NCBI GenBank assembly: GCA_933228675.1
Contig: OW121743.1
Location: 114,129,781 to 114,193,780, forward strand
Source: Stomorhina lunata
Lineage: Eukaryota > Arthropoda > Insecta > Diptera > Rhiniidae
Reading direction: 5' to 3'
DNA length: 64,000 bases
The translations under genes and the position numbers were made by a program. Shown piece after piece: positions 8,190-64,000 of the stretch (positions are counted from its first letter, which is position 1; each line of letters opens with the position of its first letter). The notes below the pieces were generated by a model. The model ran no database searches and was not told the origin of the DNA. It saw nothing but the letters and a program-made list of their open reading frames with translations.

Positions 8190-11100
8190 TATGAAAAATT
8201 TTCAATAGCTATTTTTTACGTGAAAAATTTTCTATAAAAATTTTTTATATGCAAATTTTGTGTAGAAATTTTTTATAGGAAAAATCTTTATATAAAAAAA
8301 TTTTCTATAGAAATTTTTTTATATAAAAAATGTTTTATAAAAATTTTTTATGTAAAAGATTTTGGAAAGAAATTTTTTAAATGAAAGAAAAATTTTCTAT
8401 AGAAATTATATAAAAAATTTTCTATAGAAATTTTTTATATGAAAAATTTTCTGTAGAAATTTTTTATATGAAAAATTGTCTATAGAAATTTTTTATATAA
8501 CAAATTTTCTATAGAAATTTTTTATATGAACAAATTTTCTATAGAATTTTTTTTTATATAAAAAATTTTCTATAGAAATTTTTTATATGAAAAATTTTCT
8601 ATAGAAGTTTTTTATATGAAAAATTTTCTATATAAATTTTTTATATAAAAAATTTTGTATAGAAATTTTTTATATGAAAAATTTTCTTTAGAAATTTTTT
8701 ATATGAAAAATTTTCGATAGAAATTTTTTATATGAAAAATTTTCTAAAGAAAGTTTTTATATGAACAATTTTCTATAGAAATTTTTTATATGTAAAGTTA
8801 TATAAAAATCTTTCTATAGAAATTTTTTATATGAAAAATTTTCTATAGAAATTTTTTATATGAAAAATTTTCTATAGAAATTTTGTATATGCATAAAAAT
8901 TTTTTTATGCAAAATTTCCTATACTTTCTTTAGAAATTTTTTATTTGTAAAATTTTCTATAGAAATTTCTTATAGAAAATTTTTTATAAAAAATTATTAT
9001 ATGTTTTTATTATTTCTATAGAAAATCTTTGATATAAAAAATTTCTATAGAAAATTTTTCATATAAAAAATTTCTATAGAAAATTTTTCATATAAAAAAT
9101 TTCTATAGAAAATTTTTCATATAAAAAATTTCTATAGAAAATTTTTCATATAAAAAATTTCTATAGAAAATTTTTCATATAAAAAATTTCTTTAGAAAAT
9201 TTTTCATATAAAAATTTTCTATAGAAAGTCTTTCATATAAAAAATTTCTATAGAAAATTTTTCATATACAAAATTTCTATAGAAAATTTTTCATATAAAA
9301 AATTTCTTTAGAAAATTTTTCATATAAAAATTTTTTATAGAAAATTTTTCATATAGAAAATTTCTATAGAAAGTCTTTCATATAAAAAATGTCTATAGAA
9401 AATTTTTCATATAAAAAATTTCTATAGAAAATTTTTCATATAAAAAATTTCTATAGAAAATTTTTCATATAAAAATAGAAAAATAGAAAATTTTTCATAT
9501 AAAAATTTTCTAAAGAAATTTTTCATATAAAAAATTTCTATAGAAAATTTTTCATATAAAAAATTTCTTTAGAAAATTTTTCATATAAAAATTTTCTATA
9601 GAAAGTCTTTCATATAAAAAATTTCTATAGAAAATTTTTCATATAAAAAATTTCTTTAGAAAATTTTTCATATAAAAATTTTTTATAGAAAATTTTTCAT
9701 ATAGAATATTTCTATAGAAATTTTTCATATAAAAATTTTCTATAGAAAATTTTTCATATAAAAATTTTCTTTAGAAAATTTTTCATATAGAAAATTTGTA
9801 TAGAAAATTTTTCATATAAAAATTTTCTATAGAAAATTTTTCATATAAAAATTTTCTATAGAAAATTTTTCATATAAAAATTTTCTATAGAAAATTTTTC
9901 ATATAAAAATTTTCTATAGAAAATTTTTCATATAAAAATTTTCTATAGAAAATTTTTCATATAAAAATTTTCTTTAGAAAATTTTTTATATTAAAATTTT
10001 CTATAGAAAATTTTTCATATTAAAATTTTCTATAGAAAATTTTTTATATAAAAATTTTCTATAGAAAATTTTTCATGTAAAAATTTTCTATAGAAAATTT
10101 CTCATATAAAAATTTTCTATAGAAAATTTCTCATATAAAAATTTTCTATAGAAAATTTCTCATATAAAAATTTTCTATAGAAAATTTTTCATATAAAAAT
10201 TTTCTATAGAAAATTTTTCATATAAAAAATTTCTTTAGAAAATTTTTCATATAAAAATTTTCTATAGAAAGTTTTTCATATAAAAAATTTCTATAGAAAG
10301 TCTTTCATATAAAAAATTTCTATAGAAAATTTTTCATATAAAAAATTTCTTTAGAAAATTTTTCATATAAAAATTTTTTATAGAAAATTTTTCATATAGA
10401 ATATTTCTATAGAAATTTTTCATATAAAAATTTTCTATAGAAAATTTTTCATATAAAAATTTTCTTTAGAAAATTTTTCATATAGAAAATTTGTATAGAA
10501 AATTTTTCATATAAAAATTTTCTATAGAAAATTTTTCATATAAAAATTTTCTATAGAAAATTTTTCATATAAAAATTTTCTATAGAAAATTTTTCATATA
10601 AAAATTTTCTATAGAAAATTTTTCATATAAAAATTTTCTATAGAAAATTTTTCATATAAAAATTTTCTATAGAAAATTTTTCATATAAAAATTTTCTTTA
10701 GAAAATTTTTTATATTAAAATTTTCTATAGAAAATTTTTCATATTAAAATTTTCTATAGAAAATTTTTTATATAAAAATTTTCTATAGAAAATTTTTCAT
10801 GTAAAAATTTTCTATAGAAAATTTCTCATATAAAAATTTTCTATAGAAAATTTCTCATATAAAAATTTTCTATAGAAAATTTCTCATATAAAAATTTTCT
10901 ATAGAAAATTTCTCATATAAAAATTTTCTATAGAAAATTTTTCATATAAAAATTTTCTATAGAAAATTTTTCATATAAAAATTTTCTATAGAAAATTTTT
11001 CATATAAAAATTTTCTATAGAAAATTTTTCATATAAAAATTTTCTATAGAAAATTTTTCATATAAAAATTTTCTATAGAAAATTTTTCATATTAAAATTT

Positions 11101-12240
11101 TCTATAGAAAATTTTTCATATTAAAATTTTCTATAGAAAATGTTTCATATAAAAATTTTCTATAGAAAATAGAATTTTTTTAAAAAATTTTTTATAGAAA
11201 AAATTTTCCATAGAAATTTTTTATATGAAAGTTTCTATAGAAATTTTTTTATATAAATAATTTTCTATAGAAATTTTTTTTATAAAAATTTTCTATAGAA
11301 ATTTATTTAAAAAAAAAAAAATTCTATAGAAATTTTTTTATATAAAAAATTTTCTATATGAAAAATTTTATATGAAAAATTTTCTATAGAAAATTTTTAA
11401 ATGAAAAATTTTCTTTAAAAACTACTTATAAATATGAAAATTTTCGATAGAAATTGTTGATATGAAAAATTTTGTATATAAATTTTTTATATATAAAATT
11501 TTCTATAGAAATTTCTTAAACGAAAAATTTTCAATAGAAATTTTTTATACGAAAAATTTTCTATAGAAATTTTTTAAATGAAAAATTTTCTATACAAATT
11601 TTTTATATGAAAAATTTTCTATACAAATTTTTTATATGAAAAATTTTTATATAAAAACTTTCTGAAGAAAATATTTCATAAAAAAAATATCTACAGAAAA
11701 TTTTTTATATAAAAAATTTCTATAGAAAATTTTTCATACAAAAAATTTCTTTAGAAAATTTTTCATATAAAAAATTTCTATCGAAACTTTTTCATATAAA
11801 AAATTTCTATAGAAAATTTTTCATATAAAAAATATCTATATTTTTCATATAAAAAACTTTTATTCAAAATTTTTACATAAGAAATTTGATAGAAAATTTT
11901 TTATGTTAAAAAATTTCTATAGAAAATTTTTCATATAAAAAATTTTCATAGAAAAATTTTGATATAAAAAATTTCTATATAACATTTTTTTACATAAAAC
12001 ATTTGTATACAAAATTTTTCATATAAAAAATTTCTATAGAAAATTTTTATATGAAAAATTTTCTATATGAAAAATTTTCTATAGAAATTTTCTATATGAA
12101 AAATTTTCTATAGAAAATTTTTATATCAAAAATTTTCTATAGAAAGTTTTTATAAGAAAAACTTTCTATACAAATTTTTGTATATAAAAAATTTTCTTTA
12201 GAAATGTTTTATATGAAAGATTTTCTATATAATTATTTAA
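8190..12240. repeat. 29-bp A/T minisatellite array 1 (about 4 kb)
   Basis: The region consists of tandem monomers of the form CTATAG-AAAA-TTTTT-CATAT-AAAAA-TTTT. Consecutive CTATAG cores are 29 bp apart over long stretches. The left part (8190-8990) and right part (11170-12240) are more degraded variants with TATATGAAAAATTTTC spacers. The centre (9050-11160) is homogeneous. The core TTTTCTATAGAAAA is palindromic. Variant monomers serve as landmarks: catatagaatatt at 9698 and 10393, catgtaa at 10074 and 10798. They show that a block of about 700 bp was duplicated. Open frames inside are composition artefacts. Confidence 0.95.
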
Positions 12241-13886
12241 AGAGTCATTATTTCCTTTTGTTACTAACCCACTGTGCAATCTTCTTTAAATAAAACAAAA
12301 CACACACATTAATTATCATGAATTCCCTAAAATAAATTTTTAGTGTTTCTATTAACAAATTCCTAATTTACCTTTTTTTTGTAAAATCTCATGCTAAAAC
12401 ACATTTTTTAAATGTCTTCATATGTAGTACGAATCTTGTACTACATGTGTGTTCTCTCTATAGTATTCAAAATACCAACCAGTTTTAGGAAATTTGCCCA
12501 AAAAAAAATTGTATTATTCAAAATTTTTAAAAAGAAATTTGTAAGTTCAATAATTATATTAAGCAAAAAAGGTAGAACATGCAAAAAAAGAACCAGCCAA
12601 ACACACGATCATAATGGTGTAGGTTATGATCAGTGATCTCTAAGCTAATAAATTTATGTCTCATCATTCAATCACACTCATTTGTGTAGATTTCCGCATC
12701 AAGTTAGTTCTCAATTTGAGTATTTTCTCACAGAGGTGGGAGTTTCGATATAATTTGAAATTATTTTATGGAGATGGTTTTTGTATTTTTGTTTCGGAAT
12801 TATGGAAAATTAACGATTAAAATTTGATGTATCAATGAAAAATTTCGGATTTTTTTAGAAATTATTCGTTTAAATTTTTTTAACCCAAATCTTGAAAGTA
12901 TTCTACAAAGATTTTTGAAACTTTTTCGATATTTATACAAAAAATTGCAATTCATACTTCTAGTGAAAAACCTATTATAGTATCAACATTTTTGCAAAGA
13001 TTTTAAAATTGGAAAAATCGTTAGTCCCAATTTTCCATCCCTGATACCTTCTACATGATGATTTTTTTTCTTTTCATAGTAAATGTTTCGGTCTCTTTTG
13101 TACATTCATATTGTTTCTGCTTAATTGTACTGTAGCATTAGCATTTGGGGAATATTTTATTTGGGATACCGTCTACAAGTTTTATAGAGATTAAACATTT
13201 TAGTACAATTTTATTGACGGTCGGTTAAATAGATCCGGTGCTCAAAGCGTTTTTTTTTTTTATTTCAAAATCTTTTTCAATAAACAAATTAATAGAAAAT
13301 TTCCAATAAACTCTTAATTCTAACATAAATATCATAATGTTTCTTTGTTTAATTTAAGAAAAACTGACAAATTAATTAACGAAAAATGTTTTAAGGCAAA
13401 AATCCACAATTAAAATTATGTGTTAATTAATTAAAATGATATAAAATTCAATTTAAAAAAGAATAATAAAAAATTATGATAAAAATTAAAAACAAAATAA
13501 TGAAAAATTAAACTATTTTCTAATTTAATTAATTTTTTAAATCAAAATATGAGAATTATTATTGTTAGAAAAATATAAAAACCTAAATTTCAAAAAATTT
13601 TTGTTGAAATTGTAAAAATTTTAGAACAAAACAAATTAAAAAAACGTTGAAAAAAATATTTTACAAATTACAAAATTATTCTACTTCCAAATTATAAAAA
13701 AAAACCTAAAATTATTTTAAAAAAATGTGTGATTCCACGACAATTTTAGCCTCCAAACAGACGGATTTACACAATTGTTGGATTATTTACAGTAAGAAAT
13801 TTCAAAATTTTAGCAACTTTTTTGTTTTAATAAATTAAGACTTTTTGAACAAAATGTTTAAAAAATGTTCCACGATTAAATTAATA
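12241..13886. other. A/T-rich intergenic DNA
   Basis: Nothing gene-like is supported. The 74-codon frame at 12412-12636 has no similarity I recognise and no splice or composition support. Confidence 0.5.
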
Positions 13887-14460
13887 AAACAAGTAAGAAA
13901 GCGCTATAGTCGGTCAAGCCGACCATACGATACCCTTCACCACTAAGGTCAAAGGTGTTATTTTTCCTGTATAAAGACAAATATTTGCTAAATTTTGCCA
14001 TCATACAAACATTTTCTCAAAACGTATATATTCAACCTGTTTCCGTCATTTGGACTTATATGAGAGCTAGGGTCAAATGTGGACCGATTATCTCGAAATT
14101 TGGCAAATTGATTACAGTTGTTACAAAAATTATGTATGCAAAGAATAAACTCAAAATTTTTATAATTATTAGATTTATCACTAATACGTGATTTTTTGTC
14201 TTATTTTGTGCGTTTTTGAAGAAGAGTTTGTATGGGAGCTATGGTCAAATGTGGACCGATTTCGAAATTTGGTACAGTGATTTAGGTTTACATAAGCAGT
14301 ATCTGTTTTAAATTTCATGAAAAAATATTGATATTTGTGGCCAATATATCAATTCCGGGAAGTGGGACCTATGGGAGGTACCATAAATAATGGACCAAAT
14401 TTCATCAAATTATCTTTAGAATTGCGACCTGTAGTTTGATTACAAGGTTTACATGGGGGT

Positions 14461-14508
<48 letters not shown>

Positions 14509-14677
14509 CCGTCCAGCCAGACGGACGGACGGACGGACATCGCTAAATCGACTCAGAAAGTGATTCTAAGTCTATTGGTATACTAAAAGGTGGGTCTAAG
14601 ACAAATATTTCTATGCGTTACAAACATCAGCACAAACTTATAATACCCTTTCCACCTATGGTGGTGAAGGGTATAAC
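13887..14677 (+). repeat. DINE-1/Helentron-like repeat, copy B (full length)
   Basis: This is a full copy of the most abundant dispersed repeat here. The left end has acaagtaagaaagcgctata, then a hairpin tcggtcaagccga, then gatacccttcaccact. The right part holds a ccagccagccgg tandem tract and cggacggacggac, i.e. (GTCC)n. The end forms a hairpin from ATACCCTTTCCACC and GGTGGTGAAGGGTAT. The left block gatacccttcaccac is complementary to that right arm, so the ends are also inverted relative to each other. A (GTCY)n tract plus a 3' hairpin is known from DINE-1/Helentron elements, and I assign the class on that basis only. No transposase is present. Confidence 0.8.
14456..14540. repeat. ccagccagccgg / ggac microsatellite
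   Basis: The 12-bp unit ccagccagccgg is repeated several times inside copy B and is followed by four ggac units. Copies at 41620-41635, 57475-57495 and 61373-61400 have much shorter versions, so this tract expanded after insertion. Confidence 0.9.
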
Positions 14678-16512: not shown

Positions 16513-17569
16513 AAGTCTGATTGTATCAGTATATATAAGAAAATAAAGGAAAACCCAAGCTTTGTGAATTTTGGACTTGTGGTTACCCTGTCTTTTCACA
16601 GTGTGAACTATTGGGAGTCAATGTTGACCACCTCAAAAGTAAAAAAAATTATTGTCCAATATGATTGATTTTTTTTACATTTTGAAAAGGGCTTAGAAGC
16701 AAAGAAAAATCATGCTACTTTACTATAATCACTTTTATTGGTTTAAACTTTAAAGTTATTTCATTTCAAAAATGAAAAAAAACTAACTTCTCTTTTCGAA
16801 TTTTTTAGTTTTTTACTAATTGTGCATTCGATGTTAAGACGATAATTTTTTAAAAAAATACGAGATATATCCAATTCTTTCGAAAATAGAACTTTAAGCC
16901 CCGTTTTTTAATATCTCGAACCGTTTTGTGTTGAGAAATTTTTAATGTGTGGTTTTCGCTCTGTCTAGAACTGGGGATAATCCTCCTGATGGGATGGCCT
17001 AACCAACCGTCGAAAAGCGTCGAGAAAATGTTTTCATTTTTTGGTTTTATCAAAAAACTATTTTTTACATTAATAAATAATTGTAATAAATTGGGATCTT
17101 AGTGCAATACACTACAGTAAAACTTTTTAATGAAAATTTTTTAATTTAGCAAAAATTCTTTGATATAAGTAAACGATTGCAAATATTGGTTATTAAATAC
17201 AAATTCTCAATATAAACTCTTAAGCCCTAATTTACAAACGAAAAAAAACTATGAAAAGCTTGTAATTTAACCCCCTAATTCATAAACAAATAATAATAAA
17301 GTTATCAAAGTCTTATCGTTGGAATTTTGTAAGAAAAATTTGATTTATAAGTTCTTCATAACATTATTTTTCATTTAGACTTTAATAATTTTATAATTCG
17401 TTTATGACTTAGGGGTATGTTAAACGATTTTAAAAAATACCTTTATGTTATGTTTTTTATTTGAGGATTGAACTTATTCAAATCACATATAAATATTTAT
17501 CCTCTATTATCTAAATAAACTGTTATTGTTTATTAACTAATAATCTTCTATCTCCCCTTCTAATTTCAG
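16513..17569. other. Probable intron or intergenic DNA before the 17.5-kb exon
   Basis: No gene feature is seen. The right end, ttctaatttcag at 17559-17569, is a good splice acceptor, so at least part of this is the last long intron of the gene that follows. Confidence 0.5.
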
Positions 17570-18076: not shown

Positions 18077-18654
18077 TATTTATTATTTAAGTGTAATTTA
18101 GTTGTAATCTTATGTAAGAATGTGAAGAAATGTTTGAAAGTTATATGAGAGTGTTTGAAGACTTTAAGTAATTTTTCTAGCAATTTTAGTTTCCTTCTTA
18201 TTTTTTTAATTTTTTATTTTTATAATTTAGTTTTATTTTTTAAAAAGTTTTGTACAGTGTTATATGAACGTATGTATGTGATCTCAGATTTTAAGCAAAT
18301 TGTAATTAATTTAACATTTAATCATGCTTTTAAGACTTTCTTTTCATTTTTTCCTGTTAATTGTTCTTTCTCTAGATATAAGAATATAATTATTTAAATG
18401 TCTTACCAGCTAAAAAAAAACTTATTTAAATATACAGAAATATATGAGATTTAGAATTCTGGTCAATAGTTATGTGTAGTTTTAATTGGATTGACAAAAT
18501 AATAAGAAACATCATATAGATTATATTCAACTTATCACAAATACAAATTTAAAGAGAAAATTTGTTTAGTATGCTAGTGACAGGAATCCAGATTTGCCGA
18601 TTTATCGGCATTTTGGCGATTTTTGACCTGAAAAGTAGTAAAGTGTATAGTAAA
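18077..18654. other. 3' untranslated region and intergenic DNA
   Basis: This follows the TAG at 18074-18076. I saw no clear AATAAA signal, and the extent of the 3' UTR cannot be fixed. The 80-codon frame at 18155-18397 is Phe/Leu-rich by composition and not convincing. Confidence 0.4.
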
Positions 18655-20215
18655 TAGTTTAGAAAAATTTTCGAATAGAAAATTTTTCTTAAAAAATTTT
18701 TCATATAAAATGTTTTGTTTAGAAAAATTTTTCACATAAAATTTTTTTGCATAGCAAATTTTTTTGTATAGAAAAATTTTTAAATAAATTTTTAAATAAA
18801 ATGTTTAAATAAAATTTTTAAATAAAAAATTTTTTAGAATAGGAAATTTTTTACATCAATTTTTTTGTATGAAAAATTTTTTATATAACATTTTTTGTAT
18901 AGAAAAATTTTAAAATAAAGTTTTTGAATAGAAAAAATTTCTACATAAATTTTTTTTGTATAAAAAAATTTTTCATATAAAATTTTTTGCATAGAAAAAT
19001 TTTCCATACAAATTTTTTGCATAGAAAAATTTTCCATACAAATTTTTAGTATAGAACAATTAATTTTCAATAGAAAATTTTTTTCAAAAAATTTTAAAAT
19101 TTTTTGTTTTGAAATTTTCCATATAAATTTTTTTGCTTAGAAAAATTTCAAATAAAATGTTTGAATAGAAAACTTATCTACTTATTTTTTTTTTTTTTTT
19201 TTTTTTTTTGTATGAACAAATTTTTCATATAAATTTTTTTGTATAGAAAAATTTTACATATAAAATTTTTTGAATAGAAAAATGTTCCATAAAAATTTTT
19301 TGTATAGAAAAATTTTCAAATAAAATTTTTGAATAGAAAAATTTTCTACATCAATTTTTTTGTATGAAAAAATTTTTTATATAACATTTTTTGTATAGAA
19401 AAATTTTCAAATAAAATTTTTGAATAGAAAAATTTTCTACATAAATTTTTTTTGTATAAAAAAATTTTTCATATAAAATTTTTTGCATAGAAAAATTTTT
19501 CATACAAATTTTTAGTTTTCAAATTTTTAGTTTTTCAAATTTTAAAATTTTTTGTTTAGAAATTTTCCATATAAATTTTTTTGCATAGAAAAATTTCAAA
19601 TAAAATTTTTGAATAGAAAATTATCTACTTAATTTTTTTTTTTTTTTTTGTATGAAAAAATTTTTCATATAAATTTTTTTGTATAGAAAAATTTTACATA
19701 TAAAATTTTTTGAATAGAAAAATGTTCCATAAAAATTTTTTCAAATAAAATTTTTTAATAGAAAAATTTTCTACATAAATTTTTTTAGTATAAAAAAAAC
19801 AAAAAATTCCATATAAAATTGTTTGTATAGAAAAATTTTACAAATATAATTTTTTGCATAGAAAAATTTCCCATAAAAATTTTTAGTACAGAAAAATTTT
19901 CAATATAAAATTTTTGAATAGAAAAATTGTTTACATAATTTTTTTTTTTTTTATATAGATAAATTTTCTATATAAAGTTTTTTGTATAAAAAAATTTTCC
20001 ATGTAAATTTTTTGTATAGAAAAATTTTCCTTAAATGTTTAGTATAAAAAAACTTTCAATAAAAATTTTTTTGTTTAGAAGAATTTTTAATATATTTTTT
20101 TTTTTTTTTTTTTTTGTAAAAAACGTTTTTAATATGAAATTTCTTTTATAGAAAAATTTTCAATAAAAGTTTGTGCTATTGAAACATTTTCAATTAAATT
20201 TTGTTTAAATATTTT
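18655..20215. repeat. 29-bp A/T minisatellite array 2
   Basis: Degenerate tandem units of the type TATAGAAAAATTTTCAAATAAAATTTTTG, mostly about 29 bp, with expanded T tracts near 19183, 19630 and 20095. A block (from about 19115 to 19330) recurs near 19560-19750, so part of the array was duplicated. It lies between the convergent 17.5-kb gene and VWA8. Frames such as 18834-19070 (-) are translations of the repeat. Confidence 0.85.
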
Positions 20216-20424
20216 GTCATATATTCCGATTTTGTTGAATACTTCTGAAAATTTACAGCCGATTTTTTTTAGAAAAAATATGTCGATTTTTTCCGAAAAA
20301 TTTCTGGCAGTCCTGGCTAATGAAGGTGATAGAGAGATCATAAGAAATGATTCCCAGATGGCCTAAACCAAGGCTGCCCAAATGTAGAGCGTTGAGAGTG
20401 CTCAATCTTAAGTCTTAGAGACAT

Positions 20425-20950
20425 ATCTGTGCTATTTTGTCAAAACTTCAAGATTTAAGTATATTTATGTCATTTCCGGCAGAAGCTAGGGTAAAATGTG
20501 GACCGATTGTTACCAAATTTCGGTTATCGGATTATGTTTAAAAAAAATTTATAGAAATTTTTATAATTACCTGGACATTTTAAAGAGTTTTGAGAGTGTG
20601 TCTCGCATAAGAGGTATGGTCAAATATAGACCGATTTCAACAAAATTTGGTGCACTGATTTCGGTAACCACATGCAATATATATGCTGAAGTTTTTTTTT
20701 AAATAAGCACAAATTTGTATCCGTAAAGTACCGAAATCTCCATTCCGAGAAGGCAGACAGACCTATAGGAGGTATCCGAAATAATGATCGGATTTTATTC
20801 AAAAAGAATAGGGACAAAAAAATATCTGCCAAATTTCATTAATTTGTCTTGAAATTTATGAACTGTACTTTGATCACAACCTGACATGGACAGCCGGACG
20901 GAAATCGACTCAAGAAGTGATTTTGAGTTGATCATGAAAATTCAAAAAAT
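20425..20950 (+). repeat. DINE-1/Helentron-like repeat, copy G (decayed)
   Basis: Diverged but collinear blocks: gatttaagtatatttatgtc, agggtaaaatgtggaccgat, then caaatatagaccgatttcaa, then a weak ggacagccggacgg tract and aaatcgactca. Both hairpin ends are lost. Confidence 0.55.
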
Positions 20951-20960
20951 CGTTAAAATG

Positions 20961-35269: not shown

Positions 35270-35700
35270 ATATAATTCTATTGAAGATGTGAATGAAGAC
35301 GTTCGCCCTGTACACCCAGCACATCAAAAACCGATGGAAATGTTGAGAAAGTTAAGAAAATTCTTACGTAGAATCGTCGGATCACTATTGGAAAAGTTGC
35401 TGTGGATGTCAACATATCAGTTGGCTTATGCCATGTATTCCAGATTTGCTTAAAAGGGTCATAACTGGTGACGAATCATGGATACAGTTATAACATCGAA
35501 ACCAATTTTTTTCGATTACGTAAAGTACATGATCCTATAGATAAAAACAACACCGTAATCATGCCTCAACAGACCTCCAGGTTCCCGCCGACTGTTTACT
35601 GTTTCAAAGATTGAAGAGACCCATGAAAGAACGGCGTTTTGGGACGATTGAGGACATGCAAACCGAATCCACCAGAAGCCGATGAATTTTTTTAATTTTC
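35270..35700 (+). pseudogene. mariner transposase relic
   Basis: Frames in pieces: ITIGKVAVDVNISVG, then LKRVITGDESWIQL (the T-G-D-E-S-W block with the first catalytic Asp), and finally LKRPMKERRFGTIEDM, the block after the last catalytic Asp. Most of the catalytic core between them is missing or frameshifted. It differs from the irritans-like relics in this window. Confidence 0.75.
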
Positions 35701-35899
35701 GTAAATACCACGATCATTAATAAAATTATTTTCACGAGTATTAAAATCATTCAGTTGGAATTTTGATGTTAACAGAGTTGGTTGGTGTAGCTTTGTTAAA
35801 GAAAATACAAAAACAAAATAGGCAAGAAACAAATCAAAATTCAATTTATAGCAACAAAATACACACAATTTTAGATTTTTATATTTTTTAGATATTTTC

Positions 35900-38460
35900 G
35901 ATCCAAAAATTTTTTTGAAGAAAAATTTTTAATAAAAATATTTTTCTTTGGCAAATTGTTCGATAAAAAATATGTTTTATAAAAAATTTTTCGATAAAAA
36001 CATTTTTCTGTAAAAATTTTCGATAAAAATATTTGTATATCAAAAAATTTTCAAATCTTCTATAGAAAAACTTTTGATAAAAAAAATTTTTTATAGAAAA
36101 AATTTTCGGTAAAAGATTAGGTCGAAGAAAAGGATAATATAATAGAAGAAGAAGAAATTTTCTTTGGAAATTTTTTTTTATTAAAAAATATAGAAAAATT
36201 TTTGATAAAAAATTTTCTATAGAAAAATTTTTGATAAAAAAATTTTCTATAGAAAAATCAAAAAAAAATTTCCATAGAAAAATTTTTGATAAAAAAAATT
36301 TTCTATAGAAAAATTTTTGATAAAAAATTTTCTATAGAAAAATTTTTGATAAAAAATTTTCCATAGAAAAATTTTTGATAAAAAATTTTCTATAGAAAAA
36401 TTTTTTCTATAGAAAAATTTTTGATAAAAAAAATTTCTATAGAAAAATTTTTGATAAAAAAAATTTCTATAGAAAAATTAAAAAATTTTCTATAGAAAAA
36501 TTTTTGATAAAAAAATTTTCTATAAAAAAATTTTCTATAAAAAATTTTTTGATAGAAAAATTTTCTATAGAAAAATTATTGATAAAAAAAAATTTCTATA
36601 TAAAAATTTTTGATAAAAAAATTTTCTATATAAAAATTTTTGATAAAAAAATTTTCTATAGAAAAATGTTTGAAAAAAATTTTTGATAAAAAATTTTCTG
36701 ATAAAAAATTTTCTATAGAAAAATTTTCTGATAAAAAATTTTCTATAGAAAAATTTTTGATAAAAAATTTTCTATAGAAAAATTTTTGATAAAAAATTTT
36801 TTATAGAAAAATTTTTAATAATAAATTTTCTATAGAAAAATTTTTGATAAAAAAATTTTCTTAATAAAAATTTTTGATAAAAGAATTTTCTATAGAAAAA
36901 TTTGTGATAAAAATAATGTCTATAGAAAAATTTTTGATAAAAAAATTTCTATAGAAAAAGTTTTGATAAAAAAAATTTTTATTTAAAAATTTTTGATATA
37001 AAAGTTTTCTATAGAAATATGTTTGAAAAAAATTTTCTATAGAAAAATTTTTGATAAAAAAATTTTCTATAGAAAAAATTCTGATGAAAAAATTTTCCGT
37101 AGAAAAATTTTTGATAAAAAAATTTCTATAGAAAAAGTTTTGATAAAAAAAAATTTGTATTTAAAAATTTTTGATAAAAAAGTTTTCTATAGAAATATGT
37201 TTGTTTCAAAAATTCTACAGAAAATTTTTCAATACAAATTTTTTTTTATCAAAACTTTTTCTATAGAAATTTTTTTATCAAAAATTTTTCTACGGAAAAT
37301 TTTTTCGTCAGAATTTTTTCTATAGAAAATTTTTTTATCAAAAATTTTTCTATAGAAAATTTTTTTATTAAAAATTTTTCTATAGAAAATTTTTTTCAAA
37401 CATATTTCTATAGAAAACTTTTTTATCAAAAATTTTTAAATAAAAATTTTTTTTATCAAAACTTTTTCTATAGAAATTTTTGATAAAAGAATTTTCTATA
37501 GAAAAATTTGTGATAAAAATAATGTCTATAGAAAAATTTTTGATAAAAAAATTTCTATAGAAAAAGTTTTGATAAAAAAAATTTTTATTTAAAAATTTTT
37601 GATAAAAAAGTTTTCTATAGAAATATGTTTGAAAAAAATTTTCTATAGAAAAATTTTTAATAAAAAAATTTTCTATAGAAAAATTTTTGATAAAAAAATT
37701 TTCTATAGAAAAAATTCTGATGAAAAAATTTTCCGTAGAAAAATTTTTGATAAAAAAATTTCTATAGAAAAAGTTTTGATAAAAAAAAATTTGTATTTAA
37801 AAATTTTTGATAAAAAAGTTTTCTATAGAAATATGTTTGAAAAAAATTTTCTATAGAAAAATTTTTAATAAAAAAATTTTCTATAGAAAAATTTTTGATA
37901 AAAAAAAATTTTCTATAGAAAAATTTCTGATGAAAAAATTTTCTGTAGAAAAATTTTCTATATAAAAATTTTTGATAAAAAATTTTCTATAGAAAAATTT
38001 TTGATAAAAAATTTTTTATAGAAAAATTTTTAATAATAAATTTTCTATAGAAAAATTTGTGATAAAAAAAATTTCTATAGAAAAATTTTTGATAAAAAAA
38101 TTTCTATAGAAAAATTTTTGATAAAAAAATTTCTATAGAAAAAGTTTTGATAAAAAAAATTTTTATTTAAAAAATTTTGATAAAAAAGTTTTCTATAGAA
38201 ATATGTTTGAAAAAAATTTTCTATAGAAAAATTTTTAATTAAAAAGATTTTCTATAGAAAAATTTTTGATAAAAAAATTTTCTATAGAAAAATTTCTGAT
38301 GAAAAAATTTTCCGTATAAAAATTTTTGATAAAAAAAAAATTTTCTATATAAAAATTTTTGATAAAAAAATTTTCTATAGAAAAATTTTTGATAAAAAAC
38401 GTTTTCTATAGAAAAATTTTTGATAAAAAAAATTTTCTATATAAAAATTTTTGATTGAAA
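35900..38460. repeat. 29-bp A/T minisatellite array 4
   Basis: Units of GATAAAAAATTTTCTATAGAAAAATTTTT, 29 bp, with variants carrying GATGAAAAAATTTTCCGTAG and TATTTAAAAATTTTTGAT. A multi-unit block starting near 36870 recurs in direct orientation from 37482. It is present inverted at 37231-37481. Peptides read from 37229-37429 (-) and 37599-37800 (+) are therefore the same, but none is a gene. Confidence 0.95.
37231..37797. repeat. 251-bp inverted duplication inside array 4
   Basis: The complement of 37231-37481 matches 37547-37797 with only one difference that I found (gac versus gat in ttctgacgaaa/ttctgatgaaa). The arms are separated by 65 bp. The spacer itself belongs to the direct-orientation block also found near 36870-36940. 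Confidence 0.9.
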
Positions 38461-41364: not shown

Positions 41365-41468
41365 GATCATGCCGTGACCGAGGATCAAACTCAGGCTGAA
41401 TATGATATGTTATGCTTAATAGTGAACGTGCTAAATAACCACATCACCCATAATGAGATATGAGTATT
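41365..41468 (-). repeat. Possible decayed tRNA-derived SINE head
   Basis: On the minus strand, gtgatgtggttatttagcac is followed about 45 nt later by gagtttgatcctcggtcac. The spacing resembles that of the A and B boxes in the SINE at 38779-39157, and the B-like gtttgatcc is recognisable, but the A box is poor. It abuts the hairpin end of DINE-like copy C. Confidence 0.3.
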
Positions 41469-47049: not shown

Positions 47050-48665
47050 TAAATCTGGGCGAGTAGAAAATTTTTAAAAAACAATTTTTCTATAGAAAAT
47101 TTTTGAATATCAAAAATGTTTCTATAGAAAATTTTTTAATATCAAAAATTTTTCTATAGAAAATTTTTTAATATCAAAAATGTTTCTATAGAAAATTTTT
47201 TAATATCAAAAATGTTTCTATAGAAAATTTTTTAATATCAAAAATTTTTCTATAGAAAATTTTTTAATATCAAAAATTTTTCTATAGAAAATTTTTTAAT
47301 ATCAAAAATTTTTCTATAGAAAATTTTTTAATATCAAAAATTTTTCTATAGAAAAATTTTTAATATCAATAATTTTTCTATAGAAAAATTTTTAATATCA
47401 AAAATTTTTAATATCAAAAATTTTCCTATAGAAAAATTTTTAATATCAAAAATTTTCCTATAGAAAAATTTTTAGTATCAAAAATTTTTCTATGGAAAAT
47501 TTTTTAATATCAAAAATTTTTCTATAGAAAATTGTTTATTATCAAAAATTTTTCTATAGAAAATTTTTTAATATCAAAAATTTTTCTATTTTTTTTTTCT
47601 ATTTTTCTAGAGAAAAATTTTTAATAGGTATCAAAAATTTTTCTATAGAAAATTGTTTATTATCAAAAATTTTTCTATAGAAGATTTTTTAATATCAAAA
47701 ATTTTTCTATAGACAATTTTTTAATATCAAACATTTTTCTATAGAAAATTTGTTAATATCAAACATTTTTCTATAGAAAACTTTTTAATATCAAACATTT
47801 TTCTATAGAAAATTTTTAAATATCAAAAATTTTTCTATAGAAAATTTTTTAATATCAAAAATTTTTCTATAGAAACTTTTTTAATATCAAAAATTTTTAC
47901 CAAATCAAAACTTTTTTCAACAACAAAAATTTTTCAACATCAAAATTTTTCAATAGAAAATTTTTCAATATCAAAAATTTTTTTAATAATAATAAAATAA
48001 TTTTTAAATCGAAAACTTTTCTATAGAAAATTTTTTAATATTAAAAATTTTTCTATAGAAAATTTTTTAATATCAAAAATGTTTCTATAGAAAATTTTTT
48101 AATAGGTATTAAAAATTTTTCTATAGAAAATTTTGTTTAATCGAAAATTTTTCTATAGAAAATATTTTAATATCAAAAATTTTTCAATAGACAATTTTTT
48201 AATATCAAATTTTTTAATATCAAAAATTTTCCTATAGAAAATATTTTAATATTAAAAATTTTTCTATAGAAAATACCTATTTCAAAATCAAAATTTTTCA
48301 TTATTAAAAATTTTTCTATCGAAAATTTTTCATTATTAAGAATTTTTCTATAGACAAATTTTCTAACGAAAATGTTTTAATATCAAAAATTTTTGAAAGA
48401 AAATTTTTCTATTTAAAAAAAAATTTTCTAAAGAAAATATTTTATTATAAAAACCTTTTCTACAGAAACTTTTTTAATATCAAAAATTTTTCTATAGAAA
48501 ATTTTTTAATATCAAAAATTTTTCTAAAGAAAAGTTTTTAATTTCAAAAATTTTTCTATAGAAAATTTTTCATTATCAAAAATTCTTCTATAGAAAATTT
48601 TTCAATATTAAAAATTTTTCTATAGAAAATTTTTTAATATCAAAAATTTTTCTATAGAAAAATTT
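47050..48665. repeat. A/T minisatellite array 5 (mostly 32-bp units)
   Basis: Units of CTATAG-AAAA-TTTTTT-AATATC-AAAAA-TTTTT, 32 bp between CTATAG cores, thus 3 bp longer than in the other arrays but with the same palindromic core. There is some disorder at 47585-47640 and 47890-48020. Confidence 0.92.
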
Positions 48666-50260
48666 CAATCCGTTTACAAAACTTTTTTTCCTACTGACCT
48701 TTACAAAAGCAGAAGATTTACTAGAAATATCCTTAATTCATAAAATAAAGCTCTTGCAATAATTACAGATTTTTAAATAATAATGTCAATGAAGACAATA
48801 ATTTAAAAATTTTAACATGAAAAAATATTTTTGTGATTATTTTTTTCGCAAAAGAAGGTTATTAAAAACGTTGATGGAAATTGCAGCAAAAAAGCAATTC
48901 TGCACCTCATAAACTCATAAACTTAAAAAGAACATAAAAAATCCGTTGTAAAAATGGAAAAATAAACTGAAAAAACAACTGTTTAACACATGGAAAGAAA
49001 TAACAAAAAATTCAAAACAAGTAATCAGATAAAAATCTTTTAACTGTAAACAAAAAAAAGCAGAAATAAGTAAACGCCCAATTAACCATTTTTATTATCA
49101 TAAACAACAACACTACCAGCAGAAACAACACTACTATACCCTTCCAACAAAATGCATAAAAGAAAGAAAAACACATGCACACTCTGACAAACTCCCACTT
49201 GCATATGGTGAGAAAACAACAAGAAAATAAACAAAACCCAAAAGTTTCAACCAATCAAAATTAAGAGAAATTGTTGTGCAAAAAACATGCAAACAAACAT
49301 GAAGTCTTTTGTGTGGAATTGTTTTTGTAATCGTTGAAACGAGTTGTCTGATTGGTCGTTGGGATGAGTGATAAGAGGCATTTAATGATGAGATTAGCCG
49401 CGAATGTACGTGCCTCTTTTGTTATGTGCGTGTTGTTATATTTCAAATTTTTGTGTGTGAATTTAAGAGAATGGAGAGTTCAAGAGACTTTAATAAATAG
49501 AAATTGCTAAAAGATAAGGCCTATAGGAATTTTGTTGATGTATAAGGATGGAATTGTATTGGGTTATTATTTGTGACCTTCAATAATTATTTAATAATTC
49601 AATTTAAAAAAATATAATTTAAAGTTTAACTTAACTTAATTTACCAAAAATTAAATTTTCAAACTAAAACAGATTTTTTTAAAACCAATTAAACATTTTT
49701 AAAATATTTTACTACCTATTAATAATTAATATTTTTTCTAAAAATTCTGATTTTGATTCTTTCTTTGCATAATTTATGAAGGACGCTTTACTAATATTGA
49801 TTATCGGATTATCGAGATAGAACTGTACAAAATTTAATAAAAGAATAGGCATCTAATTTTGTTAAAATTGGAACTTTTTTTTATAAAAAGAATTTGTTTT
49901 AAAATTTATTAAAAAAAATTCTGTATTCCTATAGGTATTAGGTAGGCAAGACTTTGTTGAATCGAAACTGCCTTTAGTTTTTTAAAAATTACATCTGTTT
50001 GACAAATACATCAATATTATTAGAACATATTCGTCAAACCTGACTATCGAATAGAACATCTGATATTCAAAATAAGCAGAAATTAATTGTACTTATATGT
50101 AGAAGGTTTTATAGAAAATTATTGGCAATTTTTTATTTAGGAGTGTGCACAAAAATATGGACTTCCACTTTTAGTTATGGAAATTAAACTAAGTGGTGAA
50201 TTTTTGTTATTTTAAATTTTAGTTAAAGCTAATAATGTTCAAATTCATTTCAGTACTAAA
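48666..50260. other. A/T-rich intergenic DNA
   Basis: No gene supported. The right part (from about 50140) must include the non-coding end of the DD37E element whose coding remnant starts at 50261 on the minus strand. Confidence 0.4.
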
Positions 50261-56850: not shown

Positions 56851-57625
56851 CAGTAAGAAAGCGATATAGTCGGTCAAGCCCGACCATACGATACCCTTCA
56901 CCACTAAGGTCAAAGGTGTTATTTTTCCTGTGTAAAGACAAATATTTGCTAAATTTTGCCATCATACAAAAATTTTCTGAAAACTTACATATATAACCTG
57001 TTTCCGTCATTTGGACTTATATGAGAGCTAGGGTCAAATGTGGACCGATTATCTCGAAATTTGGCAAATTGATTACAGTTGTTACAAAAATTATGTATGC
57101 AAAAAATAAATTTAAAATTTTCATTATCTTTAGATTTACGAGCGTTTTAGCGATTTTTTGTCTCATTTAGTGCGTTTTTAAAGAAGAGTTTGTATGGGAG
57201 CTATGGTCAAATGTGGACCGATTTCAAATTTGGTACAGTGATTTTAGTTTTTATAAGCAGTATTTGTTTTGAATTTCATGAAAAAATATTGATATTTGTG
57301 GCCAATATGTCAATTTCGGGAAGTGGGACCTATGGGAGGTACCATAAATAATGGACCGATTTTGACCAATTTCAATGGCCATGGTCCCATTATCAAAAAA
57401 ATGATCTGATCATCAAATTATCTTTAGAATTGCGACCTGTAGTTTGATTACAAGGTTTACATAGGGGTCTACTCACGGACGGATGGACGGACGGACATCG
57501 CTAAATCGACTCAGAAAGTGATTCTAATATACTAAAAGATGGGTCTAAGACAAATATTTCTATGCGTTACATACATCAGCACAAACTTATAATACCCTTT
57601 CTACCTATGGTGGTGAAGGTTATAA
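56851..57625 (+). repeat. DINE-1/Helentron-like repeat, copy D (full length)
   Basis: It starts cagtaagaaagcgatatagt, carries the usual blocks and a short cggacggatggacggacgga tract, and ends in the hairpin cctatggtggtgaaggttat. It is nearly collinear with copies B and C. Confidence 0.85.
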
Positions 57626-57652
57626 ATAGACTTGACAGTTAAAAATTGTTAT

Positions 57653-59105: not shown

Positions 59106-59157
59106 CCACCTTTAAAATTTACTTCAGCTGCAGAAAAGTATATTTGTGTATCGGTTG

Positions 59158-60400
59158 GTTAAATTTCAAGGGCCGATGTTGATTTTGAATAAAACACAAA
59201 CTATTTAGGAAATTATTGTAATTTTATTTTATTATGATATATTGGTATTACTCAATTATGTATGGAACAAAATATCGGCCAAATGGGCGCCGCAACCACA
59301 GCGGCACACCTCGATCCGATGGTCCAAATTTTCGATGACCCTGAGGCATAATGGAGTTTCTATGCCGTTAATGTGCCGAATTATCTCATCATTTAGCTTT
59401 TGAATTGTTGCTGGCTTATCGACGTACACCTTTTCTTTTAAATAACCCCAAAGAAAAAAGTCCAACGGTGTCAAATCACATGATTCTGGCGGCCAATTGA
59501 CATCGCCATTACGTGAGATAAAAGAGCATTTGTTTTGTTAGCTGTGTGGCAAGTGGCACCGTCCTGCTGAAACCACATATCGTCCACATCCATATATTCC
59601 AATTCGGGCCATAAAAAGTTCGTTATCATCTCACGATAGCAAACACCATTCACAGTAACTGCCTGACCGGCCTCATATTGGAAAAAATACGGCCCGATGA
59701 TGCCGCCAGCCCATAAACCGCACCAAACAGTCACTCTTTGTGGGTGCATTGGTTTTTCGACAATCACTCTTGGATTCTCATTCGCCCAAATGCGGCAATT
59801 CTGTTTATTGAGAAATCCACTGAGGAGAAAATGTGCCTCATCACTGAAGATGATTTTCTTCGAAAATTGATCATCCACTGTTGCCATTTCTTGCCACCAT
59901 TCTGCCCATTCACGACGTTTGGAATGGCCAAGAGGCTTTAGTTCTTGAGCCAATTGCACCTTGTAAGCTTGTAAATGCAAGTCTTTATGCATAATGTTCA
60001 TCAACGACGAGCGTGAGAGGTGCAATTGTTGGGCACGACGACGAGTTGAGGTGGACGGCTCTTCAGCCACACTATCGCGAACAGCAGCAATATTTTCTGC
60101 AGAACGAGCTGTACGAGCATGCACTGGTGTTCTCACATCTTCTACAGACCCGGGTTGCTCGAATTTTTCCACGATTTTTGCGATTGTACGCACATTTGGA
60201 CGATCAAATTGACCAAAAAAAATGATTTGAACGCCCATTTTCATAATAAGTCTAGATAACTTTAACACGTTGTTGGATTGTGTATCTCTCCATGGTTCAA
60301 ATTGAGTAAGTCTGAAATAGAGAAATGTCAAATAAAATTCGGAAAAAAAACTTGGCGTTTAGGTGTGGTTCACATTCAACATCGGCCCTTACAATTTAAC
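59158..60400 (-). mobile_element. mariner-superfamily transposon with AAGGGCCGATGTTGA ends
   Basis: The inverse ends are gttaaatttc-AAGGGCCGATGTTGA at 59158-59182 and TCAACATCGGCCCTT-acaatttaac at 60376-60400. The total of about 1.24 kb is the usual size for a single-gene mariner-type element. It encloses the transposase pseudogene at 59256-60293. Confidence 0.85.
59256..60293 (-). pseudogene. DDD-type mariner-superfamily transposase, broken
   Basis: The start is ATG at 60293 (MERYTIQQRVKVI), closed by an in-frame TAG at 60252-60254. The frame moves at an A-run (60215-60222) before GQFDRPNVRTIAKIVEKFEQ, the N-terminal helix-turn-helix. It stays open through STRRRAQQLHLSRSSLMNI (second HTH), IIFSDEAHF (first Asp), WCGLWAGGIIGPYFF and QQDGATCHTANKTNALLS (second Asp). 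Near 59515-59525 a deletion plus frameshift leads to RNGDVNWPP and TPLDFFLWGYLKEKVY (third Asp). This protein type is abundant in insects and often annotated as a transposable-element Tc3-like or DUF4817-containing protein. Compared with what I know of the family, about 9-10 residues are lost between the second and third Asp blocks. Confidence 0.9.
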
Positions 60401-60854: not shown

Positions 60855-60954
60855 TAATCAAGTAAACGACTTTAACAAATTATATGTGTTTTAAAATTAC
60901 TTATCTGTAAACAAATTTGAAGTATCTTTACGATTTTAGGGATACTTATTTAAG

Positions 60955-61537
60955 ATACTTTTAAGAGTTGATATTGAATGAGAGTTTTAGTCAAATATGG
61001 GTTAATTTTAACATTTTCTTCGGATTTACGAGCGTTTTAGTGAATTTTGTCCCATTTAGTGCGTTTTGAGAACAGAGTTTGTATGGGTCAAATGTGGACC
61101 GATTTCAACGAAATTTGGTACAGTGATTTAAGTTTACATAATCAGTATTTCTTTTAAATTTCATGAAAAAATATTGATTTTTGTGGCCAATATATCAATT
61201 CCGGGAATTGGGACCTATGGGAGGTACCATAAATAATGGACCGATTTTAACGAATTTCAATAGCCATGGTCCCATTATCAAAAAATATGATAATGAATAT
61301 GATATGTGTCAAATTTCATAAAATTATCTTTAGAATTGCGACCTGTAGTTTGATTACAAGGTTTACATGGGGGTCCAGCCAGCCAGACGGACGGACGGAC
61401 ATCGCTAAATCGACTCAGAAAGTGATTCTAAGCTTTTGGTATACTAAAAGATGGGTCTAAGACAAATATTTCTATGCGTTACATACATCAGCACAAACTT
61501 ATAATACCCTTTCCACCTATGGTGGTGAAGGGTATAA
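60955..61537 (+). repeat. DINE-1/Helentron-like repeat, copy E (left end missing)
   Basis: It begins in the internal block near gatattgaatgagagtttta, then gatttacgagcgttttagtg. It carries a short ccagccagacggacggacgg tract and ends in the intact hairpin ataccctttccacctatggt. It lacks the left hairpin half. Confidence 0.8.
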
Positions 61538-62559
61538 AAACTGAAATCTATATTCGACTGCGTTTTTACACCACCTAAAAGTGTCATCGTTAGCATCGAG
61601 TATGACTGTAGCCAGAATTGTATTGTAGCAAATATTGATCCCAAAGAACAAAAAATTAACTTCTAAACAAAATTAGACATTGTTGGTGTCTGCTAGACTT
61701 CCACTTTAGTCGCAGAGGGTTAAATATATAGGCCAAAGACGTACGACCTAATATTATTTCTAAGGCAGAGGTAGTATTTAGTTGAGCCCCTGTAATATTG
61801 AGCAGAGCAACTCTATTAAGGTATAATTCTATCTTTAGTCCTTAAAACTTTAAATAATTCTTAATATGGAAAAATATCATAGGTTATTTTAAGTTCATAT
61901 GGATAGACATACATTCAAATGTATGTTAAAAGGAGTTTTAAAATAAAAATCATATTTTGTAACTAGAGATCCAAAAAAAAAAAAAGAAAACGATATGTTC
62001 TCATTTTACCATTAGTCCTTTGACCTCGATGGACGAGTTTTCTGTTATCAACGACTAAAGAAACTTGAAATGATTGAAGATCATAAAGATATCTTTACAT
62101 CTTAGTTTTTAATACACAAAATCCCCCTAAATAAAACAATTTTAAATTCCCATATCATCATTAAAAAATATGTAATTAAAACCAACGCATGCCAAAATAT
62201 CTGAATCAGTGTCAATCTAAAAAAAAAAAAACTAAATAAGGCTTCTTTTCTTATACAAAACTTAAAACATAAAAATAAAACATGCAAAAAAATCCTTTCA
62301 CACACTCTGTCCACAGCTTAAACAGAAAACAAGGATACAACTTTCATTCAAGAATTTTGTTTCACTTTGAAAGTAATAAATATTAAATTTTATAATAAAA
62401 AAAAACATGTTAAAGTTAAGGTATCAATGTCATGACAATTAAATCACTCGAGTGCACATCATAAGATCATCAAATTAAAGCAAATAACAAGGATTTGGAC
62501 AATTGTAGGATAACAAATTTTTATTACAAAATTTCTTAAATTAAAAAAAATTTTATAGA
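61538..62559. other. A/T-rich DNA, no gene seen
   Basis: Nothing supported. It may be intronic if the 55.9-kb gene continues to the right. Confidence 0.4.
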
Positions 62560-64000
62560 AAAAATTTCGATATAAAATTTTTTTAAGAAAAATTTTCGAT
62601 ATAAAATTTTTAAAGAAAAATTTTCAATATAAAATTTTTAAAGAAAATTTTTCAATATAAAATTTTGATAGAAAAATTTTCAGTATAAAATTGTTAAAAA
62701 AAAAATTTCAAAACAAAATTTTGAATAAAAAATTTTTATAGCAAAATTTTATGTGAAAATTTGTATAAAAAATGTTTAATATCAAATTTTTATACAAACA
62801 TTTTTGATATCAAATTTTTGTAGAAAAATTTTCGATATAAAATTTTTATAAAAAAAAAATGTCGATACAAAATTTTTAAAGAAAAATGTTTGATATAAAA
62901 TTTTTAAAGGAAATTGTTTGACACAAAATTTTTAAAGGAAAAATTTCAATATAAAATTTTTCTGTCAAAAAAATTTCCGTATAAAATATTTCTGTAGAAA
63001 AATTTATATAAAATTTTCTATAGAAGAAATTTTGATATAAATTTTTCTATGGAAAAAATTTTGATATACATTTTTCTATAGAAAAAATTTCGATATAAAT
63101 TTTTTTATAGAAAAAATTTCGATATCAATTTTTCTATAGAAAAAATTTCTATATAAATTTTTCTATAGAAAAAATTTCGATATAACTTTTTCTATAGAAA
63201 AAATTTCGATAGAAATTTTTCTATAGAAAAAATTTCTTCAAAAAAATAACAAAATAGTCGGGATGTAAATATTATTCAAAAAGAAGAGTATCTGTTACAT
63301 TTATTTATTAATGTAACAGACCAATTTATTGATAAAAAGCCAAAAAATGTTTGCGGAGAAATTTCGATATAAATTTTTCTACAGAAAAATTTTCGACATA
63401 AATTTTTCTATAGAAAAAAATTCGATATAAATTTATATATAGAAAAATTTTCGGTATAAATGTTTCTATAGAAAAAATTTCGATATACATTTTTCTATAG
63501 AAAAAATTTTGATATAAATTTTTCTATAGAAAAAATTTCGATATAAATTTTTTTATAGAAAAAATTTCGAAATAAATTTTTCTATAGAAAAAAATTTGAT
63601 ATAAATTTTTCTATAAAAAAAATTTCGATATAAATTTTTTATAGAAAAAATTTTAATATAAATTTTTCTTAAAAAAAGAATTTTGATATAAATTTTTCTA
63701 CAATTTCGATATAAATTTTTCTATAGAAAACATTTTCATATAAATTTTTTCATAGAAAAAATTTCGATATAGATTTTTTTTAATGAAATAATTTCGATAT
63801 AAATTTTTTTATAGAAAAAAATTACGATATAAATTTGTCTATAGAAAAAATTTCGATATAAATTTATCTACAGAAAAAATTTCGATATAAATTTTTTTAT
63901 AGAAATAATTTCCATATACATTTTTCTACAGAAAAAAATTTGATATAAATTTTTTTATAGAAAAAATTTCAATATAAATTTCTCCATAGAAAAATTTTCG
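62560..64000. repeat. 29-bp A/T minisatellite array 6 (runs off the window)
   Basis: Units of CTATAG-AAAAAA-TTT-CGATAT-AAA-TTTTT, 29 bp, most regular from 63010 on. There is a non-repeat interruption at about 63240-63355. The left part is degenerate, with aaagaaaaattttcaatata units. The array continues beyond the right edge. Confidence 0.92.

What the first reader, a model, noticed from the sequence alone, without database searches (positions are those of the whole stretch)
8190..64000. Six separate arrays are variants of one 29-bp minisatellite with a palindromic TTTTCTATAGAAAA core
Arrays at 8190, 18655, 25715, 35900, 47050 and 62560 make up about 13 kb (roughly a fifth) of the window. Each monomer follows TATAG-A(4-6)-T(3-6)-spacer-A(3-6)-T(4-6)-C, with an array-specific spacer: CATAT, CAAATA, CGATATT, GATA, AATATC or CGATAT. 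Spacing between cores is 29 bp in five arrays and 32 bp in the sixth, although spacer sequences differ. Keeping length while the sequence drifts suggests a constraint, or a mobile or replication-based way of seeding new arrays. I know of no described family with this organisation, but cannot search.
Basis: seen in the sequence. Interest (0 to 1): 0.75.

Follow-up and report, generated by a model that had tools for sequence, protein, structure and literature searches.

The report
Million-copy palindromic minisatellite in fly genome
The six arrays belong to one very large family of short tandem repeats scattered through a fly's chromosomes, in which a 14-letter palindrome stays nearly constant while the letters between palindromes differ from array to array, so something seems to keep or favour that palindrome.

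Summary
The six arrays are real, related and far beyond chance. The window is from a blowfly-like fly (VWA8 fragment 95% identical to Lucilia cuprina). Details need correcting: spacing is 29 bp in three arrays, about 30 and 30-31 bp in two, and 32 bp in one; the exact core TTTTCTATAGAAAA is absent from two; in A1, A4 and A5 the "spacer" looks like a diverged second copy of the core.

The main result lies outside the window. The 728-Mb genome holds 928,301 exact copies of the core; its reversed control occurs 32 times. Clear family arrays are in 6 of 12 ten-kb spot samples (about 12% of 120 kb). Across 13 arrays the core averages 95% pairwise identity, the 15-19 bp linkers 63% (shuffled linkers 52%). 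All 199 exact cores in window plus samples lie inside arrays. Some arrays carry block duplications and inverted blocks; one fills 98% of an intron.

No universal carrier appears, but one array shares its left flank with an array on another chromosome.

Best reading: a dispersed euchromatic minisatellite that grows by unequal exchange and template switching, reseeds by more than one route, and keeps its core for a reason not shown, perhaps because it promotes copying. New variant of a known kind.

The parts
8189..12232 (.). Array A1, 29-bp unit TTTTCTATAGAAAA-TTTTTCATATAAAAA, with several orientation switches (minus at about 8189-9000, 11200-11550 and from 12045; plus elsewhere)
   Evidence: the same 39-mer occurs 435 times in the genome
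12020..12053 (.). Orientation switch centred on a CTATAG core: CATATAAAAAATTT-CTATAG-AAAATTTTTATATG, a near-perfect palindrome
   Evidence: read; switch called
9577..10960 (+). Block duplications inside A1: 436 bp at lag 724 and 410 bp at lag 695 (about 25 and 24 units), at most 2 mismatches each
18663..20215 (+). Array A2, degenerate, 30-31 bp unit with core TTTTGTATAGAAAA
25693..27779 (+). Array A3, 29-bp unit TTTTTTATAGAAAA-TTTTCGATATTAAAA
25686..27820 (-). VWA8 intron that A3 fills (2087 of 2135 bp); GT donor and CAG acceptor; the joined exon ends match 111 residues of the L. cuprina protein at 93.7%
35894..38460 (+). Array A4, unit TTTTCTATAGAAAA plus ATTTTTGATAAAAAA-type linker, spacing mode 30 bp
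37221..37475 (-). Inverted block in A4, 99.2% identical over 255 bp to the reverse complement of 37553-37807
35669..35904 (+). Left flank of A4, shared with the left flank of a GATA-type array at C1:155,560,746 (87% over 196 columns, then 40 bp at 100% up to the array edge; the C1 copy has about 129 bp more between the two pieces)
47064..48667 (-). Array A5, 32-bp unit with linker TTTTTTAATATCAAAAAT (reverse of the GATA-type order)
62510..64000 (+). Array A6, 29-bp unit TTTTCTATAGAAAA-AATTTCGATATAAAT, running off the window
63235..63355 (.). Non-array island inside A6; 72 bp of it recur beside an array in L043 at 98.6%

Best explanation
This is one dispersed, mainly euchromatic minisatellite family. 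A unit of 29-33 bp consists of a 14-bp palindrome (TTTTCTATAGAAAA) and a linker of 15-19 bp that is homogeneous inside an array and differs between arrays. Shown: arrays are homogenised locally, hold duplicated blocks and, in some, inverted blocks, so they grow by unequal exchange and by replication or repair that switches template, sometimes folding back at a palindromic core. Shown: the same unit type sits at many separate loci, one pair of loci shares a flank, and most loci examined share none. Inferred: new loci are seeded by short array pieces that arrive by more than one route (inside captured or mobile DNA in some cases, as bare repeat DNA in others). Inferred: the linker drifts and is re-homogenised while the core is retained because copies with an intact core are copied more often, for example because a nick, pause or bound protein at the palindrome starts the template switch.
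For: 928,301 exact cores against 32 for the reversed control in 728 Mb. The A1-type 39-mer occurs 273+162 times, reversed control 0; the listed places (list cut) form at least ten clusters on C1 and C2. Clear family arrays in 6 of 12 spot samples, 14.3 of 120 kb. Core identity 0.95, linker identity 0.63 (shuffled linkers 0.52) over 13 arrays; core above linker in 78 of 78 pairs. Base-matched substitution inside arrays, core against linker: GC-type arrays 28/295 v 225/1438 at C/G (p 0.006) and 76/1781 v 78/1067 at A/T (p 0.0008); AT-type arrays 65/640 v 64/389 at C/G (p 0.004). Block duplications in A1, A4 and A5; a 99.2% inverted block in A4; several switches in A1, one of them centred on a core. 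All 199 exact cores in window plus samples lie in arrays, so spread is not by single cores. A shared flank for A4.
Against: Core retention as an active process is not proved. A/T positions of AT-type arrays show no core advantage (231/3906 v 255/4867, p 0.17), one array (C1_8.21) goes the other way at C/G (17/73 core v 3/35 linker), the array-level test of core against linker rates was not significant (7 of 12 arrays, p 0.20), and monomers are not independent. The core is nearly all A/T, and G/C linker positions decay fast (G>A and C>T dominate in L002a and L002c), so AT-biased mutation explains part of it. Decay toward array edges, expected under unequal exchange, was significant in only 3 of 16 arrays tested and in none of the three window arrays tested (A2, A3, A5; A1, A4, A6 not tested). 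A2, A3 and A6 show no long recent block duplications. The route of seeding was seen in one case only.
Confidence: 0.55

Rival explanations
1. The arrays are internal modules of mobile elements (Helentron/HINE-like, foldback-like or hAT-like), which carry them to new loci, as in the oyster.
For: A4's left flank recurs beside a same-type array on C1. L002 holds four 31-bp arrays, two in each orientation, within 8 kb. A2 may lie between weak inverted ends (by eye). An island in A6 recurs beside an array in L043.
Against: The six window arrays share no flank at their edges. Of 46 flanks of 800 bp compared, the A4 pair is the only one of separate loci with shared sequence running up to the edge of same-type arrays; the other cross-locus hits among 36 hit rows lie inside flanks and look like common dispersed repeats. 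Blastn found no significant inverted ends for A2; the best inverted flank match of the five arrays tested was 21 bp at A1, 100-270 bp from the array. The four L002 arrays have different flanks apart from the sequence between neighbours, which both flanks contain.
Confidence: 0.2
2. The core is a binding site for a host protein (chromatin, insulator or structural), and selection keeps site and spacing of about three helical turns.
For: Constant palindrome with variable linkers and a narrow unit length. Unrelated rumen bacteria carry 2-3 copy intergenic arrays with the same core at 32-33 bp, which fits a preferred spacing, though that search asked for this core and for spacings of 24-38 bp.
Against: About a million sites is too many for site-by-site selection; 5 of the 13 arrays have lost the exact core; 29 and 33 bp differ by more than a third of a turn; the substitution deficit inside arrays is modest.
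Confidence: 0.17
3. Arrays arose independently by slippage in AT-rich DNA and look alike only because of composition.
For: AT content of 86-89% in the window arrays; AT-rich linkers look alike.
Against: 928,301 against 32 for the same letters reversed; 15 of 15 pairs beat dinucleotide shuffles; GC-richer arrays (L002, L047, L048) carry the identical core.
Confidence: 0.03
4. Assembly or consensus error inflates or inverts repeats.
For: Long arrays are hard to assemble; orientation switches could be misjoins.
Against: Monomers differ enough to anchor reads (82-92% identity to consensus in most arrays), and A3 sits cleanly between intact splice sites. Reads were not available.
Confidence: 0.05

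Closest known systems
Cg_HINE non-autonomous Helentrons carrying satellite-like central repeats, Crassostrea gigas (PMC7492417; abstract and outline seen)
   Same: Many short satellite-like arrays scattered through the genome, grouped by unit type.
   Different: There every one of the 13 clusters is the central module of a defined mobile element with its own flanks; here one shared flank was found and no general carrier. A constant palindromic core with changing linkers is not in that abstract.
Euchromatic 1.688 and Rsp-like satellites of Drosophila (recalled; only search listings seen)
   Same: Dispersed euchromatic arrays with local homogenisation and movement between loci.
   Different: Units there are far longer (hundreds of bp, recalled) and no conserved palindrome with changing linkers is recalled.
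Foldback-type elements: Tetris of Drosophila virilis (PMC4079207) and Galileo (PMC3573991, PMC4168063); start of abstracts seen. FB with 31-bp inner repeats is recalled
   Same: Tandem repeats in inverted arrangement, as in L002 and in the inverted blocks of A1 and A4.
   Different: No paired long inverted ends or transposase were tied to these arrays; no array pair was tested as an element with both ends.
Dispersed TCAST1 satellite of Tribolium (PMC5844308, start of abstract seen)
   Same: Satellite repeats scattered in euchromatin and near genes.
   Different: A different sequence and organisation; no 14-bp core with variable linkers is described in what was seen.

Membership tests
Dispersed euchromatic satellite or minisatellite family | Tandem units sharing one ancestor at many separate loci | tested here: met
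Dispersed euchromatic satellite or minisatellite family | Location outside centromeric or pericentromeric blocks | tested here: met
   Array A3 fills a VWA8 intron; arrays occur in 6 of 12 spot samples over five of the six large contigs sampled (C2, C7, C10 clear; C1 weak; none in the one sample each of C11 and C12), and A1-type arrays on C1 and C2. Centromere positions are unknown.
Dispersed euchromatic satellite or minisatellite family | Homogenisation within arrays | tested here: met
   array-specific linkers and identity to consensus of 0.80-0.92; block duplications in 3 of 6 window arrays
Helentron/HINE central repeats | Same 5' and 3' flanks round the arrays | tested here: not met
   no shared edges among the six window arrays; one left flank shared between two loci, no matching right flank at that pair
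Foldback element | Long inverted repeats made of tandem units, with target duplication | tested here: inconclusive
   inverted arrays in L002 and inverted blocks in A1 and A4; ends and target duplications not established
Coding array | Translated products known elsewhere | tested here: not met
   none of 143 candidate proteins scored E<=1 with a 138-residue open frame of A4; one frame of one array tried

The most novel reading that the evidence does not exclude
The palindrome TTTTCTATAGAAAA is a cis-acting amplification signal: an enzyme or replication pause acting at it copies segments of about 31 bp again and again, so that new arrays keep the core and take whatever linker lies beside it. 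The linker is a passenger and the core a selfish motif present nearly a million times.
Probability: 0.25. Interest if true: 0.85.

Novelty: new variant of a known kind. Interest (0 to 1): 0.6.

Why it matters
If the counts hold, a 14-bp palindrome inside 29-33 bp units is one of the main components of this fly's chromosomes and sits in introns. Core-constant, linker-variable arrays separate what must be kept for a tandem repeat to multiply from what need not, which makes the question of how new tandem arrays are born and spread testable in one genome: compare arrays by linker, flank and age, and ask what acts at the palindrome.

Tried and rejected
Random slippage: rejected on counts and shuffles. 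Single-core insertion as the way of spread: no exact core outside arrays in 184 kb. Translated arrays as a probe for other species: nothing at E<=1. RNA families: none in the window at gathering scores; in L043, L044 and L046 only nine sub-threshold microRNA-model matches. I had suspected a hammerhead ribozyme in L043 from its letters; Rfam gave none at E<=0.5, so I dropped it. tRNAs: none. Related sequences: 0 stretches in viral contigs for two spaced patterns; 8 stretches in prokaryote genomes; 12 viral contigs hold a single 18-mer ATTTTTCTATAGAAAAAT, not followed. A hypothesis that decay toward edges would be general: 3 of 16 arrays significant. DNA search of the genome with an A1-type 87-mer returned nothing because that tool skips simple repeats.

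Known slips in my own scripts: the printed header says 200 shuffles, 60 were run; the L003 linker was typed with one T too many and A4 was given as 29 bp by eye although its spacing mode is 30; units there were rotated and oriented on the core, which favours the core, although shuffled cores reach only 0.58. The 12 spot samples were placed at round coordinates, not at random, 7 of them on the window's own contig; 8 of the 20 places asked for did not exist.
Full report
WHAT WAS CLAIMED. Six arrays of one 29-bp minisatellite with the core TTTTCTATAGAAAA and array-specific spacers, with length kept while sequence drifts.

WHAT IS THERE. Tandem Repeats Finder and autocorrelation find all six arrays. 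Periods are 29 (A1, A3, A6), 30 with a strong 15 (A4), 30-31 (A2) and 32 (A5). The exact core occurs 105 times in the window, all in A1, A4, A5 and A6, and in none of 100 shuffles. A2 and A3 have near-cores with one changed letter. All 15 pairs of units beat 60 dinucleotide-preserving shuffles each.

WHERE IT IS. The window is G000:C10:114,129,781-114,193,780 of a 728-Mb assembly in 104 contigs. A 1,046-residue VWA8 fragment at 22085-25222 is 95% identical to the Lucilia cuprina protein, 89% to Haematobia irritans and 88% to Musca vetustissima, so this is a calyptrate, blowfly-like fly; the species was not identified. A3 lies in a VWA8 intron (25686-27820) and makes up 2,087 of its 2,135 bp; the joined exon ends match 111 residues of the Lucilia protein at 93.7%.

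HOW MUCH THERE IS. The core occurs 928,301 times in the assembly; the same letters read backwards occur 32 times. The A1-type 39-mer occurs 273 + 162 times, its reverse 0 times; the listed places, a cut list, form ten clusters on C1 and C2. Of 12 ten-kb spot samples, 6 (L002, L003, L004, L009, L010, L012) hold clear family arrays, 14.3 kb of 120 kb; L001 and L007 hold weak ones, L008 and L011 unrelated repeats, and L005 and L006 none that reached the cut-off. The samples were not random. At 30 bp per unit the exact cores alone imply roughly 28 Mb (inference).

WHAT IS CONSTANT. Thirteen arrays from the window and the spot samples (weak and unrelated ones left out) have units of 29-33 bp. Core identity averages 0.95 and linker identity 0.63, against 0.58 and 0.52 for shuffled letters; the core exceeds the linker in 78 of 78 pairs; 8 of 13 have the exact core and 5 are one change away. 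Arrays found through the core show further linkers, such as GTAAGCGATCGCTATAG (L047) and ATATGTCTGTGACACAT (L048), the latter in an array whose 43 cores at C1:53571-54886 are all 31 bp apart. Among four GC-containing linkers, two of six pairs are more alike than shuffles at p<0.05, and L047 with L048 are not (0.50, p 0.62). Inside arrays, base-matched substitution at C/G is lower in the core in both classes (28/295 v 225/1438; 65/640 v 64/389), and at A/T in GC-type arrays (76/1781 v 78/1067) but not in AT-type arrays (231/3906 v 255/4867). Counted by array without base matching, 7 of 12 arrays have the lower rate in the core (p 0.20). The effect is therefore strong between arrays and modest within them, and AT-biased mutation explains part of it.

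HOW ARRAYS CHANGE. A1 holds blocks of 436 and 410 bp duplicated at lags of 724 and 695 bp; A4 of 210 and 180 bp at lags 606 and 636; A5 of 154 bp at lag 96; A2, A3 and A6 none at that cut-off. A1 changes orientation several times (82 windows plus, 35 minus, 16 unclear of 133); A4 has one inverted block, 99.2% identical to the reverse complement of the block 78 bp further on. One A1 switch is centred on a CTATAG core. A2, A3, A5 and A6 keep one orientation. Better units in the middle than at the edges, a sign of unequal exchange, is significant in 3 of 16 arrays.

HOW ARRAYS SPREAD. The six window arrays share no sequence at their edges. Among 46 flanks from the window and fetched loci, one pair of separate loci shares sequence up to the array edge: A4 and a GATA-type array at C1:155.56 Mb. 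Right sides of that pair do not match. All 199 exact cores in window plus samples lie in arrays. At C2:132.08 Mb a 31-bp GC-containing array lies within about 50 bp of a 29-bp A1-type array. So neither single cores nor one carrier explain the spread; several routes are likely, with bare or captured array pieces as seeds (inference).

AN ODD PARALLEL. Of 84,980 prokaryote genomes, 8 stretches hold two cores 24-38 bp apart, seven labelled Lachnospiraceae and one Clostridiales. All have spacings of 32 or 33 bp, 2-3 exact copies, changing linkers, and no open frame of 100 residues contains the array. Eight neighbouring frames show no common protein family. The search was set to find this core, so a chance match of an unrelated bacterial site is likely; it is noted because the layout is the same.

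WHAT IS KNOWN. Nine searches of 5.39 million open papers, two of them for the letters themselves, gave no description of this repeat; listings only were seen except the abstract and outline of PMC7492417 and passages of PMC7081965 on the blowfly Aldrichina grahami (48% repeats, unit types not given in the passages seen). Subscription papers, older fly work and repeat databases were not searchable, so an earlier description is possible.

VERDICT. A real and very abundant dispersed minisatellite family; an ordinary kind of thing in its growth, unusual in its scale and in the split between a kept palindrome and changing linkers.

Noticed in passing
L054-L061 (Lachnospiraceae and one Clostridiales MAG): Two or three copies of an extended palindrome around TTTTCTATAGAAAA at 32-33 bp spacing with changing linkers, between genes in rumen bacteria; no common neighbouring protein family.
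   Followed up: partly
window 25686-27820: A VWA8 intron that is 98% tandem array yet has normal splice sites.
   Followed up: yes
window 18577-20320: Array A2 may lie between imperfect inverted ends (CAGGAATCCAGA / CAGGACTGCCAGA) with a 7-of-8 flanking duplication (GCTAGTGA / GCTAATGA). Seen by eye; blastn gave no significant match.
   Followed up: partly
window 63235-63355 and L043 1014-1085: A 72-bp stretch, 98.6% identical and holding the inverted repeat TGTTACAT...ATGTAACA, lies beside arrays at both places; a 78% relative of the L043 flank is at window 16943-17113, away from any listed array.
   Followed up: partly
window 1083-1561, 13886-14676, 20435-20890, 41465-42267, 45770-46364, 56852-57630, 61004-61549: An abundant dispersed repeat, 65-91% identical between most copies, with short internal repeats.
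   Followed up: no
window 2820-3834 and 59471-60358: Open frames that look like transposase remains: helix-turn-helix and DDE_3 matches in the first, a weak DUF4817 helix-turn-helix match in the second.
   Followed up: partly
L008 674-1460, L011 4457-5124, L001 3368-4276: Other tandem repeats (39, 28 and 18 bp). The first two score no better than shuffles against the family; the L008 unit has significant dyad symmetry and the L011 unit an exact 12-bp palindrome.
   Followed up: partly
L049 and window 38450-38470: The right edges of two GATA-type arrays both run into AATATTAAAAAAAAAA; perhaps a shared border, perhaps chance in A-rich DNA.
   Followed up: no
L002 1089-9094: Four 31-bp arrays within 8 kb, two in each orientation, with two linker types that are more alike than shuffles (0.67, p 0.02).
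   Followed up: partly
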